A stretch of DNA of 7,697 bases from an uncultured Chitinophagales bacterium. GTDB lineage: Bacteria > Bacteroidota > Bacteroidia > Chitinophagales > Chitinophagaceae. A model generated the notes under the pieces. It saw only the letters and a program-made list of their open reading frames with translations, was not told where the DNA came from and did not search any database. Location: the NCBI GenBank assembly GCA_946886475.1, contig CAMPIQ010000166.1, positions 1-7,697 of the forward strand, given 5' to 3'. A program made the position numbers and the translations under genes. Every line of letters begins with the position of its first letter. The first letter of the stretch is position 1. Shown piece by piece: positions 5,605 to 7,697 of this stretch.

Positions 5605-6648
5605 GTAAAATACATCCTCAGAAAATTTTTTTATGGCCTGCTTGTACTGGTGGGAGTGGTGGTATTAGTATTTGTATTATTTCAGGGATTTGGTGATCCT
5701 GCAAGACTGGTTATGGGCCAGTCGGGTGATGCCGCCACACAGGCCAATATCCGCAAAGAACTTTACCTTGACCAGCCAAAATGGAAACAGTTTCTTTTTT
5801 ATCTCAATGATGTTTCTCCGGTTAGCATACACTCCCGTGAGGAGATCAAACAAAAAGATTTAAAAGGCTTTTTTATCGGAGGTGAAAAAAAGCTTGCATT
5901 CAAACTGCCTTATCTGAGAAAATCCTACCAGACCAAAAGATCTGTAAGCTCAATATTAATGGAAGCATTACCGGGAACACTCATTCTTGCATTTGCCGCC
6001 ATGCTGATTGCTGTAGCTATTGGTATTCCGCTTGGTGTGCTGTCCGCTACAAAACAGAATACCTGGGTTGATACAACAGCAGTGTTCTCAAGTATCGTAG
6101 GAATATCGGCTCCTTCTTTTTTTATGGGGATTATCATTGCTTATGTCTTTGGTTTTTTATGGAGTGACTGGACGGGACTTCACATCACAGGGAGCTGGTT
6201 TGAAATTGATGAAAATGGGAACAAAAGACTCACCATGCAAAACCTGATCCTGCCAGCCATTACACTGGGCATCCGTCCCCTTGCTATCATCACACAACTC
6301 ACCCGCAGTTCCATGCTCGATGTTCTTGACCAGGATTATATCCGGACAGCTTATGCAAAAGGACTTGGAAGAAAACAGGTGATTTGGAAACATGGATTAC
6401 GTAATGCCCTGAACCCCGTTGTTACAGCTATCACCGGTTGGTTCGCTGAATTATTGGCCGGAGCTTTTTTTATTGAATATATTTTTGGATGGAAGGGTAT
6501 CGGCAAGGTAACGGTTGACGCCCTGGAAAAACTTGATTTTCCTGTAGTGATGGGATCCGTTTTGATCACGGCAACATTCTTCATTCTGATCAATATCCTC
6601 GCCGATGTTTTATACGGCATTATTGACCCCCGCGTCCGGATCAGTTAA
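5602..6648 (+). CDS. ABC transporter permease, DppB/OppB type
   Basis: A 348-residue inner-membrane permease of the dipeptide/oligopeptide/nickel importer class (BPD_transp_1). It has helix 1 at about 9-28, a long periplasmic loop, then about five helices at 124-149, 159-186, 214-234, 273-293 and 314-338. The cytoplasmic EAA loop that docks on the ATPase is clear at residues 245-275 (DYIRTAYAKGLGRKQVIWKHGLRNALNP). The ending IDPRVRIS is typical of DppB proteins. The loop at about 75-115 replaces the usual G-D-L-G-x-S segment with a charged stretch (PYLRKSYQT). The start is TTG 5602: an in-frame stop ends the previous gene at 5589, no ATG follows until residue 38, MVKYILRKFF is the normal family N-terminus, and AAGG at 5592-5595 serves as a ribosome site. 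No partner permease, ATPase or binding protein is in the window, so the substrate is open. Confidence 0.92.
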   Translation: MVKYILRKFFYGLLVLVGVVVLVFVLFQGFGDPARLVMGQSGDAATQANIRKELYLDQPKWKQFLFYLNDVSPVSIHSREEIKQKDLKGFFIGGEKKLAFKLPYLRKSYQTKRSVSSILMEALPGTLILAFAAMLIAVAIGIPLGVLSATKQNTWVDTTAVFSSIVGISAPSFFMGIIIAYVFGFLWSDWTGLHITGSWFEIDENGNKRLTMQNLILPAITLGIRPLAIITQLTRSSMLDVLDQDYIRTAYAKGLGRKQVIWKHGLRNALNPVVTAITGWFAELLAGAFFIEYIFGWKGIGKVTVDALEKLDFPVVMGSVLITATFFILINILADVLYGIIDPRVRIS

Positions 6649-6694
6649 TTAGGCCGGGTACAAAAATATTTCCAGTTAAGAGGGGTTATAATTT

Positions 6695-6702
6695 TACATT
6701 TG
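6695..6702 (+). promoter_or_regulatory. -7 promoter box for the CBS-domain gene
   Basis: TACATTTG matches TAnnTTTG exactly. No clear TTG or TTTG lies 17-23 nt upstream; GTTA at 6675-6678 is the nearest. It ends 47 nt before the ATG at 6750, giving a leader of about 40 nt with no obvious hairpin. Confidence 0.6.
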
Positions 6703-6749
6703 CAACACAAGCCGCCAGTAACGATTGCTAAACACATAAAACCATTCTT

Positions 6750-7193
6750 ATGGAAAAGATAGCTGAGATATTGGCCCGAAAATACCCACAATTCAACACT
6801 GTAATTCCCGGCTGCTTCGTTAGTGATGCGCTATACCAGATGTGCTCGGAAAATGTGGACTTCCTGATTGTACTGGATGAAGATAAATTCCAGGGAGTGA
6901 TCACCGATCATGATATTGCAAGCAGGATCCTTTTTGAAAACAGGCCGCTGAATAAGATACCGGTAAAGGAATTCATGAGCACAACCATTCCGGTAGCCAC
7001 ACCGGAAACTTCCCTGGAGCAATGCATGCAATTAATGGAGCGCTATAATGTGCGTCACATCGCTATTTTCGACCGCTTTAATTTTATGGGCGTCATTTCA
7101 TCATACGACCTGATGCATGAAGCACTGACCAACAGGAGTGAGGTTTTTGAGGAATCGGGCAACAAGAGAACCGGTTATCCGTGGAATTATTGA
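6750..7193 (+). CDS. Two-CBS-domain protein
   Basis: A 147-residue cytoplasmic protein made only of a CBS pair (Bateman module), which usually binds adenine nucleotides such as AMP, ATP or S-adenosylmethionine and acts as a sensor. CBS 1 covers about residues 14-64 and ends in FQGVITDHDIASRIL (47-61). CBS 2 covers about 74-127, opening with VKEFMSTTIPVATPETSLEQCMQLM and ending in FMGVISSYDLMHEAL (112-126). Both carry the G-V-(I/V)-(T/S)-x-x-D segment whose Asp often binds ribose. There is no fused catalytic, transport or DNA-binding domain, so its partner must be elsewhere. ATG 6750 is the natural start. The gene has its own promoter and converges with DUF721; a heptad repeat block begins 4 bp after its stop. 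Family call is sure; ligand and partner are unknown. Confidence 0.92.
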   Translation: MEKIAEILARKYPQFNTVIPGCFVSDALYQMCSENVDFLIVLDEDKFQGVITDHDIASRILFENRPLNKIPVKEFMSTTIPVATPETSLEQCMQLMERYNVRHIAIFDRFNFMGVISSYDLMHEALTNRSEVFEESGNKRTGYPWNY

Positions 7194-7197
7194 AGGG

Positions 7198-7246
7198 AGC
7201 CGGGAGTCATTAGTCGAGAGTCGAGTCGGGAGTTCAAAGTTCAAAG
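7198..7246 (+). repeat. Heptad repeat block A, seven consecutive 7-bp units
   Basis: The block divides without gaps into 7-mers: AGCCGGG (7198), AGTCATT (7205), AGTCGAG (7212 and 7219), TCGGGAG (7226), TTCAAAG (7233 and 7240). Two unit types are doubled side by side. It starts 4 bp after the CBS stop codon. Confidence 0.8.
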
Positions 7247-7326
7247 TCTGGCCGTTTATAGTATGGAGTGTTTTTGAGTTATATGAAATACATAATGTCA
7301 AGGACTCCCGGCTTTGAACTTTGAAC
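7232..7326. repeat. Inverted repeat between convergent genes
   Basis: GTTCAAAGTTCAAAG (7232-7246) is perfectly complementary to 7312-7326, a 15-bp stem enclosing 65 nt. A second perfect pairing, AGCCGGGAGT (7198-7207) with ACTCCCGGCT (7304-7313), crosses the first, so RNA could adopt either one, or a pseudoknot. Lying between two 3' ends, it could protect or terminate both transcripts, but neither arm is followed by a T-tract. Confidence 0.7.
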
Positions 7327-7346
7327 CATGAACCACAGACCTGCAA
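7298..7346 (-). repeat. Heptad repeat block B, opposite orientation
   Basis: Read on the minus strand from 7346, the 7-mers are TTGCAGG, TCTGTGG, TTCATGG, TTCAAAG, TTCAAAG, CCGGGAG and TCCTTGA. The doubled TTCAAAG and the xCGGGAG unit are shared with block A but in a different order. The block ends one base before the DUF721 stop codon complement (TTA at 7348). Confidence 0.8.
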
Positions 7347-7347
7347 C

Positions 7348-7629
7348 TTACTTTATAACCACTTCATCAATTACATTATCACCCAGGGCTTCATTGATGC
7401 GTTGTATGATCTTTTCTTTCTGATAAACCAGTTCCTGTTTAAGCGGGGCCACATTGGTGGTAATAAATAATGTACGGTTGATCACTTTGAGCTGGTCAGT
7501 ATAACGGGCAATGGTTTTTCCCATTACCTTTTCCCAGACCTCTTCCACCTGCATAGCCTGGATATCGCCTTTGATCCGGCTTTGCTTCAAAAATTGCCTG
7601 ATGGCATCACCTATCCTGTACTGACCCAT
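7348..7629 (-). CDS. DUF721 (DciA-like) protein
   Basis: A 93-residue protein consisting of one small DUF721 domain, a KH-like fold related to the N-terminal part of DciA, the replicative helicase loader of many bacteria. Visible family features are the first helix (IGDAIRQFLKQS, 6-17), VWEKVMGKTIARYT (31-44, with W32 and G37), the strand LFITT (54-58), and the helix LKQELVYQKEKIIQRINEALG (63-83), followed by a closing strand IDEVVIK. In Bacteroidota this gene often lies next to recF, as I recall; recF would be past the right edge. Whether it loads helicase here is unproven. ATG 7627-7629 is preceded by its own -7 box only 4 nt upstream. Repeat blocks flank it on both sides, and the downstream block reaches its stop codon. 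Length is typical for the short Bacteroidota form. Confidence 0.85.
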   Translation of the reverse strand: MGQYRIGDAIRQFLKQSRIKGDIQAMQVEEVWEKVMGKTIARYTDQLKVINRTLFITTNVAPLKQELVYQKEKIIQRINEALGDNVIDEVVIK

Positions 7630-7633
7630 GAAG

Positions 7634-7665
7634 CAAAGGTATGGAGTTCAAAGATCATAGTTCAA
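7634..7665 (-). promoter_or_regulatory. Promoter of the DUF721 gene, -33 element inside the repeat
   Basis: On the minus strand, TACCTTTG (7641-7634) matches TAnnTTTG, and TTG (7665-7663) lies 21 nt upstream, within the known 17-23 range. The box ends 4 nt before the ATG at 7629. The TTG is part of heptad TTCAAGT of block C. Confidence 0.65.
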
Positions 7666-7697
7666 GTCTTCAAGAGTCTTTAGTCATGAGTCAGGAG
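7647..7697 (+). repeat. Heptad repeat block C, continues past the window edge
   Basis: Consecutive 7-mers are TTCAAAG (7647), ATCATAG (7654), TTCAAGT (7661), CTTCAAG (7668), AGTCTTT (7675), AGTCATG (7682), AGTCAGG (7689), then AG. TTCAAAG and the AGTCnnn type are shared with block A. The array is cut by the window end. Confidence 0.75.

What the first reader, a model, noticed from the sequence alone, without database searches (positions are those of the whole stretch)
7198..7346. Heptad-mosaic intergenic repeat between convergent genes
Almost the whole CBS-DUF721 gap is built of 7-bp units: seven consecutive on the + strand (7198-7246) and seven on the minus strand (7298-7346). The doubled TTCAAAG and an xCGGGAG unit occur in both blocks, but the order differs: xCGGGAG precedes TTCAAAG-TTCAAAG in block A and follows it in block B read in the same sense. 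Simple inverted duplication does not explain that; shuffling or slippage of 7-bp modules does. Heptanucleotide STRR repeats are established in filamentous cyanobacteria; I do not know of a described equivalent in Bacteroidota. Possible roles are a bidirectional 3'-end structure or a recombination or nucleoid element.
Basis: partly seen in the sequence, partly recalled or inferred. Interest (0 to 1): 0.75.

Follow-up and report, generated by a model that had tools for sequence, protein, structure and literature searches.

The report
Inward-facing seven-base repeats between genes
The gap holds two facing runs of seven-base DNA words, one case of a widespread but little-studied repeat class whose words change between species while its spacing, location and direction stay much the same, and whose role is unknown.

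Summary
The 154-bp CBS-dciA gap is 7-periodic (lag-7 identity 0.50 against 0.25; 0 of 5000 shuffles). A third block lies upstream of dciA. The window's own genome is not held, so I tested relatives. In 7 of 8 related loci the two genes abut (-7 to +2 bp); the eighth has 110 bp without periodicity. Samples of five family genomes gave 301 lag-7/8 'arms' in 153.5 kb of intergenic DNA against 3 in one shuffle. Arms mostly face inward: the G-richer strand points away from the nearer gene, whatever its direction (270 of 360). Inward AGTYNNN pairs occur in 27 of 198 Bacteroidota genomes, outward pairs in 1 of 198. Partner arms share words; sites persist between species while words change. A role tied to convergent 3' ends is not supported. 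The same architecture with one G-rich word is published for Xanthomonas (PMC4692102). Verdict: a new, many-worded variant of a known kind. Most likely 7/8-nt slippage plus hairpin copying between arms at tolerant gene borders; the polarity is unexplained.

The parts
7198..7250 (+). Arm A: degenerate heptads (AGTCATT, AGTCGAG, AGTCGAG, AGTCGGG, AGTTCAA, AGTTCAA, AGTCTGG from 7205), starting 4 bp after the CBS stop codon; G-rich strand points away from the CBS gene
   Evidence: Lag-7 0.62 over 7194-7250, 0 of 5000 shuffles; words and G 18 / C 9
7298..7346 (-). Arm B: heptads on the minus strand, 1 bp from the dciA stop codon; G-rich strand points away from dciA
   Evidence: Lag-7 0.535 over 7298-7347, 0 of 5000 shuffles; plus strand G 9 / C 15
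7251..7297 (.). AT-rich spacer between the arms, not significantly periodic
   Evidence: 7247-7297: lag-7 0.41, 255 of 5000 shuffles
7232..7251 (+). Left half of the best close inverted pair (GTTCAAAGTTCAAAGTCTGG), partner 7307-7326, 90% complementary, 55 nt between
   Evidence: gap as single-stranded DNA z -3.37 (0 of 200 shuffles); as RNA z -1.30 (+) and -3.24 (-)
7307..7326 (-). Right half of that inverted pair
7198..7211 (+). Second, competing inverted pair (AGCCGGGAGTCATT with 7300-7313, 93%); it crosses and overlaps the first, so both cannot form at once
7645..7697 (+). Third block, upstream of dciA, runs off the window: AGTTCAA, AGTTCAA, AGTCTTC, AGTCTTT, AGTCATG, AGTCAGG; again points away from the gene
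6750..7193 (+). CBS-domain protein gene (left neighbour)
   Evidence: Pfam PF00571
7348..7629 (-). dciA (DUF721) gene (right neighbour)
   Evidence: Pfam PF05258 DciA, E 4.5e-16

Best explanation
The gap carries one member of a class of paired, inward-facing heptad (elsewhere also octad) arrays that sit at gene borders in Bacteroidota genomes. Shown: the period, the intergenic location, the inward G-rich polarity, word sharing between partner arms, site conservation with word change, and absence of the insert from eight related loci. Inferred: arrays grow and shrink by slippage in 7/8-nt steps; because the arms can pair as a hairpin, single-strand fold-back copying (template switching) transfers words between arms, which keeps arms alike while unit order drifts. 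They accumulate where they do least harm, next to stop codons and away from promoters. Any role as a stem-loop boundary of transcripts or chromosome is secondary and unproven.
For: Lag 7, then 8, dominates intergenic DNA: 43 of 506 regions at lag 7 and 24 at lag 8 against 0 shuffled; lags 9 and 10 reach 6 and 7, lags 14, 16 and 21 (multiples) 22, 12 and 17. 301 arms against 3 in one shuffle and 17 in coding DNA. Partner arms share 5-mers, 0.269 against 0.100 for non-partners, 0 of 2000 permutations; same period in 42 of 51. Partner alignments beat unit-shuffled ones (17.4 against 14.6; 14 of 68 at p<0.05; non-partners 12.4 against 10.8). At one orthologous gap G006 has CGTGAGG words on both arms while G005 and G007 have GGTGAAT words on both. 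Site conservation: both/first only/second only/neither 17/5/0/22, 9/3/4/27 and 7/2/1/24 in three species pairs. Over nine species pairs, where only one species has arms its gap is the longer in 18 of 24 cases. Convergent gaps are most often filled.
Against: Slippage alone gives no polarity, yet the inward strand is G>C in 270, C>G in 81 and equal in 9 of 360 arms, also in lone arms (121:34), while ordinary inverted repeats show none (39:39, 18 equal). Over all 39 orthologous gaps with arms on both sides of a comparison, arm-to-arm similarity within a species (15.6) did not exceed the between-species cross value (16.6; higher in 22 of 39), so concerted change rests on single cases. In the window itself unit order is not shared between arms.
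Confidence: 0.5

Rival explanations
1. Selected bidirectional boundary element: the arms fold as an RNA stem-loop that stops or protects transcripts arriving from either side, often around an intrinsic terminator.
For: Convergent gaps enriched (50 of 121 against 34 of 144 divergent, p 0.002); minus-strand RNA fold z -3.24; a terminator hairpin dispersed in G006 and G007 carries inward heptads on both sides in 11 of 15 copies read.
Against: Arms in divergent gaps face inward too (37:12); plus-strand RNA fold z only -1.30, 21 of 200 shuffles as good; no terminator-like site in 6600-7697 (0 found, 1.2 expected); 155 of 360 arms are the only arm detected in their gap and would have no partner to fold with.
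Confidence: 0.22
2. A small non-autonomous mobile repeat (REP/BIME- or MITE-like), perhaps moved by a Y1/HUH (RAYT-type) transposase that reads one polarity of a hairpin.
For: Polarity; paired units present at sites that are short and empty in a sister; the family of 16 copies in G006 and 2 in G007; Y1_Tnp (PF01797) in 12 of 12 genomes chosen as heptad-bearing and in 5 of 10 others.
Against: With arms masked, few armed gaps have a homologous copy in the same genome sample; words differ element to element; fixed ends and target duplications were not searched for; Y1_Tnp is also found where no arms were seen, and G173 has arms without it.
Confidence: 0.17
3. Recombination or nucleoid element: the inverted arms act as substrates or binding sites.
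For: A tRNA-Ser segment next to heptad arms is inverted between G006 and G005.
Against: One case only; no shared word exists for a sequence-specific protein; genomes with inward AGTY pairs have SbcD in 6 of 27 against 64 of 171 without (p 0.14), so a hairpin nuclease does not exclude them.
Confidence: 0.07
4. Chance or low-complexity sequence.
For: Single words such as AAGTTC are unremarkable; in the A+T-rich G194 shuffles gave 4 arms against 6 real ones.
Against: 0 of 5000 shuffles; 301 against 3 in relatives.
Confidence: 0.01

Closest known systems
GGGAATC (Xanthomonas) and GGGGA(C/T)T (Nostoc) heptameric repeats, Rehm et al. 2015, PMC4692102 (passages and sections 10 and 16 read)
   Same: 7-nt unit; intergenic; in Xanthomonas close +/- pairs in convergent orientation (70 and 75 cases); [quoted passage not shown] pointing away from the gene; mostly the same genes in two Xanthomonas species but varying sequence; few between divergent genes; role unknown
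   Different: One G-tract word family per genome there; here many words per genome, also octads, and only 13 of 139 distinct doublet words hold GGG or CCC, so a G-quadruplex cannot be the common feature
TAACTGA heptamer repeats, MacGregor 2015, PMC4679880 (passages and section 12 read)
   Same: Intergenic heptamer direct repeats; in some Bacteroidota they lie among other heptamer repeats; relatives have the same gene neighbourhood without the repeats
   Different: One word, mostly just upstream of start codons in Beggiatoaceae; one inverted repeat besides 169 direct sets; no TAACTGA doublet in my seven genome samples
Long simple sequence repeats (Mrazek et al. 2007; seen only as cited in PMC4679880 and PMC4692102; the paper itself is not held)
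   Same: Heptanucleotides the commonest long class in most genomes; slippage linked to polymerase contact length
   Different: Nothing on inward pairing in the citing passages that I saw
STRR repeats of filamentous cyanobacteria (recalled; only a search listing seen)
   Same: Intergenic heptanucleotide arrays
   Different: Not compared here
REP/BIME elements (definition recalled)
   Same: Short, extragenic, in facing pairs
   Different: One conserved palindrome and a transposase partner define them; here the arms are tandem and word-diverse

Membership tests
Inward-facing heptameric repeats (Rehm et al. type) | Tandem 7-nt units over most of the array | tested here: met
Inward-facing heptameric repeats (Rehm et al. 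type) | Intergenic, many loci per genome | tested here: met
   In relatives only; own genome not held
Inward-facing heptameric repeats (Rehm et al. type) | Facing plus/minus pairs, G-rich strand pointing away from the gene | tested here: met
   Window A, B and third block; relatives
Inward-facing heptameric repeats (Rehm et al. type) | One dominant G-tract word able to form a G-quadruplex | tested here: not met
   Many words per genome; 13 of 139 distinct doublet words hold GGG or CCC
TAACTGA repeats | TAACTGA units in tandem | tested here: not met
   No such unit in the tiled blocks; no doublet in seven relatives' samples
Intrinsic terminator | Short G+C-rich stem, loop 3-8, T run | tested here: not met
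   0 found in 6600-7697
MITE / REP-like mobile repeat | Homologous copies dispersed in the genome | tested here: inconclusive
   Few with arms masked, one clear family in G006/G007; window genome not held
MITE / REP-like mobile repeat | Target-site duplication and fixed ends | not tested
   No search made
Cyanobacterial STRR | Published STRR consensus words | not tested
   Consensus known from recall only

The most novel reading that the evidence does not exclude
The strong polarity (AGTY-type, generally G-richer strand on the 5' side of the hairpin, pointing away from the gene) in Bacteroidota with many unrelated words, and in published Xanthomonas and Nostoc repeats, means that an active, polarity-reading process acting in 7-8 nt steps on single-stranded DNA at gene borders writes these arrays. 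They would then be footprints of one general, undescribed DNA-processing or repair activity rather than ordinary slippage or a sequence-specific element.
Probability: 0.2. Interest if true: 0.85.

Novelty: new variant of a known kind. Interest (0 to 1): 0.58.

Why it matters
Heptanucleotide arrays have been noted in scattered bacteria without explanation. Genomes that hold many words but one spacing and one direction separate what may be essential (7/8-nt step, gene border, polarity) from what is not (the word, G-tracts). That makes the question of why 7 testable, and it speaks against G-quadruplex formation as the common cause. It also matters practically: such arms can mislead terminator, promoter and assembly tools.

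Tried and rejected
G-quadruplex cause: rejected as the common feature, 13 of 139 distinct doublet words hold GGG or CCC. SbcCD loss as the permissive factor: none of nine family genomes checked has an SbcD match over the cut-off, but over 198 genomes the link is weak (6 of 27 against 64 of 171, p 0.14; the 6 were read by hand from a match list cut at its weak end), and heptad-rich G323 has SbcD. RAYT/Y1 transposase: present in 17 of 22, not specific. Conserved core plus variable positions in the unit: on untrimmed arms mean z 0.46, 11% above 2, contiguous core 0.21 against 0.21 (7) and 0.20 against 0.15 (8); on trimmed arms mean z 1.69, core 26.5% against 19.8% and 23.4% against 14.3%. Shared descent of units could produce this, so I do not claim it. 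AGTY as a special word by abundance: not supported, the tool's reversed control of AGTYNNN x5 matched as many genomes (85 against 83 of 198 by my hand count; 7 against 8 of 8). Common mobile core: mostly absent. Concerted evolution as a general statistic: not shown over 39 gaps. Stop codons in all frames as the reason for 7 and 8: considered by eye for a few words and dropped. Telomere-like healing of breaks (same polarity): dropped, because spacer with promoter-like or terminator sequence lies between arms in several cases. Rfam: one sub-threshold snoRNA hit, taken as chance. A paper search for six of the repeat strings found four unrelated papers. The statement that I found no many-word description in Bacteroidota rests and on the open-licence library only.

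Limits: genes were called with my own simple script; one shuffle per region; large contigs were picked from match lists, and G078 was picked because it is rich, so densities are not typical. Only one search is an unselected sample: 38 new handles in list order plus 2 stretches of G323; 6 dropped as shorter than 20 kb, 32 counted (the two G323 stretches are in its lag and orientation counts). Nine species pairs were compared; Fisher tests were run on three.

Full report
What is there. The CBS gene (6750-7193, +) and dciA (7348-7629, -; Pfam DciA, DUF721 in the finding) converge across 154 bp. Both blocks exist as described. Lag-7 identity is 0.497 in the gap, 0.62 in A and 0.535 in B, each beyond all 5000 dinucleotide shuffles; the middle is not periodic beyond chance. 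A scan of the window at lags 5-15 puts the three best lag-7 stretches at 7192-7247, 7302-7357 and 7642-7697 (32, 27 and 27 of 49); elsewhere a lag-9 stretch inside a gene reaches 30. The third block, upstream of dciA, was not in the finding; it has AGTTCAA, AGTTCAA, AGTCTTC, AGTCTTT, AGTCATG and AGTCAGG. In AGTY register block A steps by 7,7,5,7,7,7.

Fold. Two inverted pairs exist and compete: 7232-7251 with 7307-7326 (90%) and 7198-7211 with 7300-7313 (93%). As single-stranded DNA the gap folds better than all 200 shuffles (z -3.37); as RNA it does so on the minus strand (z -3.24) but not clearly on the plus strand (z -1.30, 21 of 200 shuffles as good). No intrinsic terminator-like site was found in 6600-7697.

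Where it comes from. CBS homologues point to Flavisolibacter and its kin. No whole genome is held for the window. Of 27 loci fetched, the eight closest (L001-L008; Flavisolibacter, Flaviaesturariibacter and MAGs, CBS identity 49-72%) have a minus-strand gene next to CBS that is 62-78% identical to the window's DciA (58 to 73 of 93 residues). In seven of the eight the two genes overlap or abut (-7 to +2 bp); L003 has 110 bp with lag-7 identity 0.25, no more than chance (1443 of 2000 shuffles as high). The window's block is therefore specific to its lineage among those compared. Six of the eight loci (not L003, L004) carry arms just upstream of dciA instead, with different words, 8-bp in L005.

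Genome-wide in relatives. In 200-kb stretches of G001, G004, G006 and G007, intergenic regions with a strong lag-7 stretch number 8, 5, 14 and 16 (of 133, 115, 134 and 124) and with lag 8 5, 2, 7 and 10, against 0 in shuffles; apart from multiples the next lags are 9 and 10 with 6 and 7 in all; coding genes gave 3 at lag 7. With a looser detector and G078 added, 301 arms lie in 153.5 kb of intergenic DNA, 3 in one shuffle, 17 in coding DNA. The 8 related loci have 23 arms in 14.0 kb (0 in shuffles); the 19 other loci, mostly from other phyla, have 3 (1 in shuffles). In 32 unselected Bacteroidota 20-kb stretches, 8 have arms, 22 arms in all against 6 in shuffles; lag 7 is the main peak (15 regions against 1; lag 14 7 against 0; lag 4 5 against 0; these three counts include two G323 stretches) and the inward direction holds in 20 of 29 arms, G323 again included. 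AGTYNNN repeated five times occurs in 85 of 198 phylum genomes, but the tool's reversed control, itself a heptad pattern, occurs in 83 by my count, so this shows that such strings are common, not that AGTY is special. The word-doublet AGTTCAAAGTTCAAAG of the window occurs in 4 of 147 family genomes, at 63 start positions in G078, and in 6 of 10 genomes of the group that the tool calls the genus of G078.

Direction. By G>C, arms in the left part of a gap are plus and in the right part minus: convergent 57:15, divergent 37:12, tandem 137:34, 9 undecided. Over 360 arms of seven samples the inward strand is G>C in 270, C>G in 81 and equal in 9; T against A shows nothing clear (180:162); lone arms 121:34; perfect 10-nt inverted repeats in arm-free gaps 39:39 with 18 equal. 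Independently of base skew, the pattern AGTY-arm then RACT-arm within 10-70 bp occurs in 27 of 198 genomes (101 start positions) and the swapped order in 1 of 198 (2 start positions). The tool's reversed controls are patterns of a second word: TCAR-arm then YTGA-arm in 16 of 198 genomes and the swapped order in 3 of 198, so that word is polar too, though its core is not G-rich (AGTTCAA contains TCAA). In the window all three blocks obey the rule.

Partners and turnover. In 51 inward pairs, left arm and reverse-complemented right arm share 0.269 of 5-mers, against 0.100 between elements of the same genome (0 of 2000 permutations) and 0.046 on the same strand; 42 of 51 have the same period. Neighbouring arms in one gap are +- in 45, ++ in 16, -- in 16, -+ in 7 and undecided in 10 cases. 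One genome holds many words. Between species the site persists while words often change: both/first/second/neither with arms is 17/5/0/22 (G078-G154), 9/3/4/27 (G006-G005) and 7/2/1/24 (G006-G007), Fisher p 8e-8, 2e-4 and 5e-5 (G006 gaps recur in two pairs). At G006 gap 38868 both arms read CGTGAGG-type words, while the orthologous gap reads GGTGAAT-type words on both arms in G005 and in G007. L006 and L007 share a recognisable spacer upstream of dciA but have different arm words. As a general statistic over 39 gaps, concerted change was not shown (within 15.6, cross 16.6, unrelated 10.1).

Place. Arms are commonest in convergent gaps: 50 of 121, tandem 123 of 460, divergent 34 of 144. In tandem gaps the median distance is 12 bp from the upstream stop and 49 bp to the downstream start; 72 of 123 lie nearer the stop. 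This fits avoidance of promoters as well as a 3'-end role. A terminator-like hairpin with a variable triplet loop occurs 16 times in G006, 2 in G007 and 0 in G005. Of 15 copies read (13 of G006, 2 of G007), 11 have inward CGTGAGG-type words on both sides and 13 on at least one; 115 inward words against 10 outward, by a word pattern that I took from this family.

Mechanism. I favour 7/8-nt slippage with hairpin-mediated copying between arms, in places where it is tolerated. Slippage steps and copying are inferred, not shown. The polarity is the fact that this account does not deliver; a boundary role and a polarity-reading mobile or repair process remain open.

Known relatives. Rehm et al. 2015 (PMC4692102; passages and sections 10 and 16 read) describe GGGAATC in Xanthomonas and GGGGA(C/T)T in Nostoc with the rule of pointing away from the ORF, close convergent pairs in Xanthomonas, and leave the function open. 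MacGregor 2015 (PMC4679880; passages and section 12 read) reports TAACTGA arrays and other heptamer assemblages in a few Bacteroidota. A survey of tandem repeats (PMC12699852, passages only) notes high repeat density in Bacteroidota; a hairpin survey (PMC13155455, passages only) and RepRanger (PMC12306157, one passage) do not mention these arrays in what I saw. So the kind is known; the many-word, 7-and-8 form in Bacteroidota with measured polarity is, as far as these searches reach, a new variant.

Noticed in passing
window 7634-7641: TACCTTTG on the minus strand (Bacteroidota -7-like, motif recalled) lies between the third heptad block and the dciA start codon.
   Followed up: no
G006:C1 about 209,700 (L083:9786-9874) and G005:C46 (L155:17575-17662): A tRNA-Ser gene with its leader lies in opposite orientation between the same flanking genes in the two species, with heptad arms at the edge of the segment.
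   Followed up: partly
L201-L215 (G006, G007): Dispersed terminator-like hairpin AAGAACGGATGCC-NNN-GGCATCCGTTCTT with a varying loop triplet, framed by inward heptads in most copies read.
   Followed up: partly
L005 10724-10854; G078 and other genomes: Octads (e.g. GTGCTAAT, GTGATAAT, GATTTCGG, GTTCACAA) behave like heptads, also as inward pairs; in 9 of 51 pairs a 7-nt arm faces an 8-nt arm.
   Followed up: partly
G344: The reversed control pattern YTGANNN x5 occurs at 505 start positions although AGTYNNN x5 is absent: perhaps a genome with its own dominant word.
   Followed up: no
G001:C21 from base 4; G004:C64 from base 123: Long perfect AGTTTGG arrays lie at or near contig starts, so they may break assemblies.
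   Followed up: no
G078:C11, e.g. sample positions 83763 and 114681: A repeated palindrome like CCTGCCTGCCGGCAGGCAGG occurs in several heptad-bearing regions.
   Followed up: no
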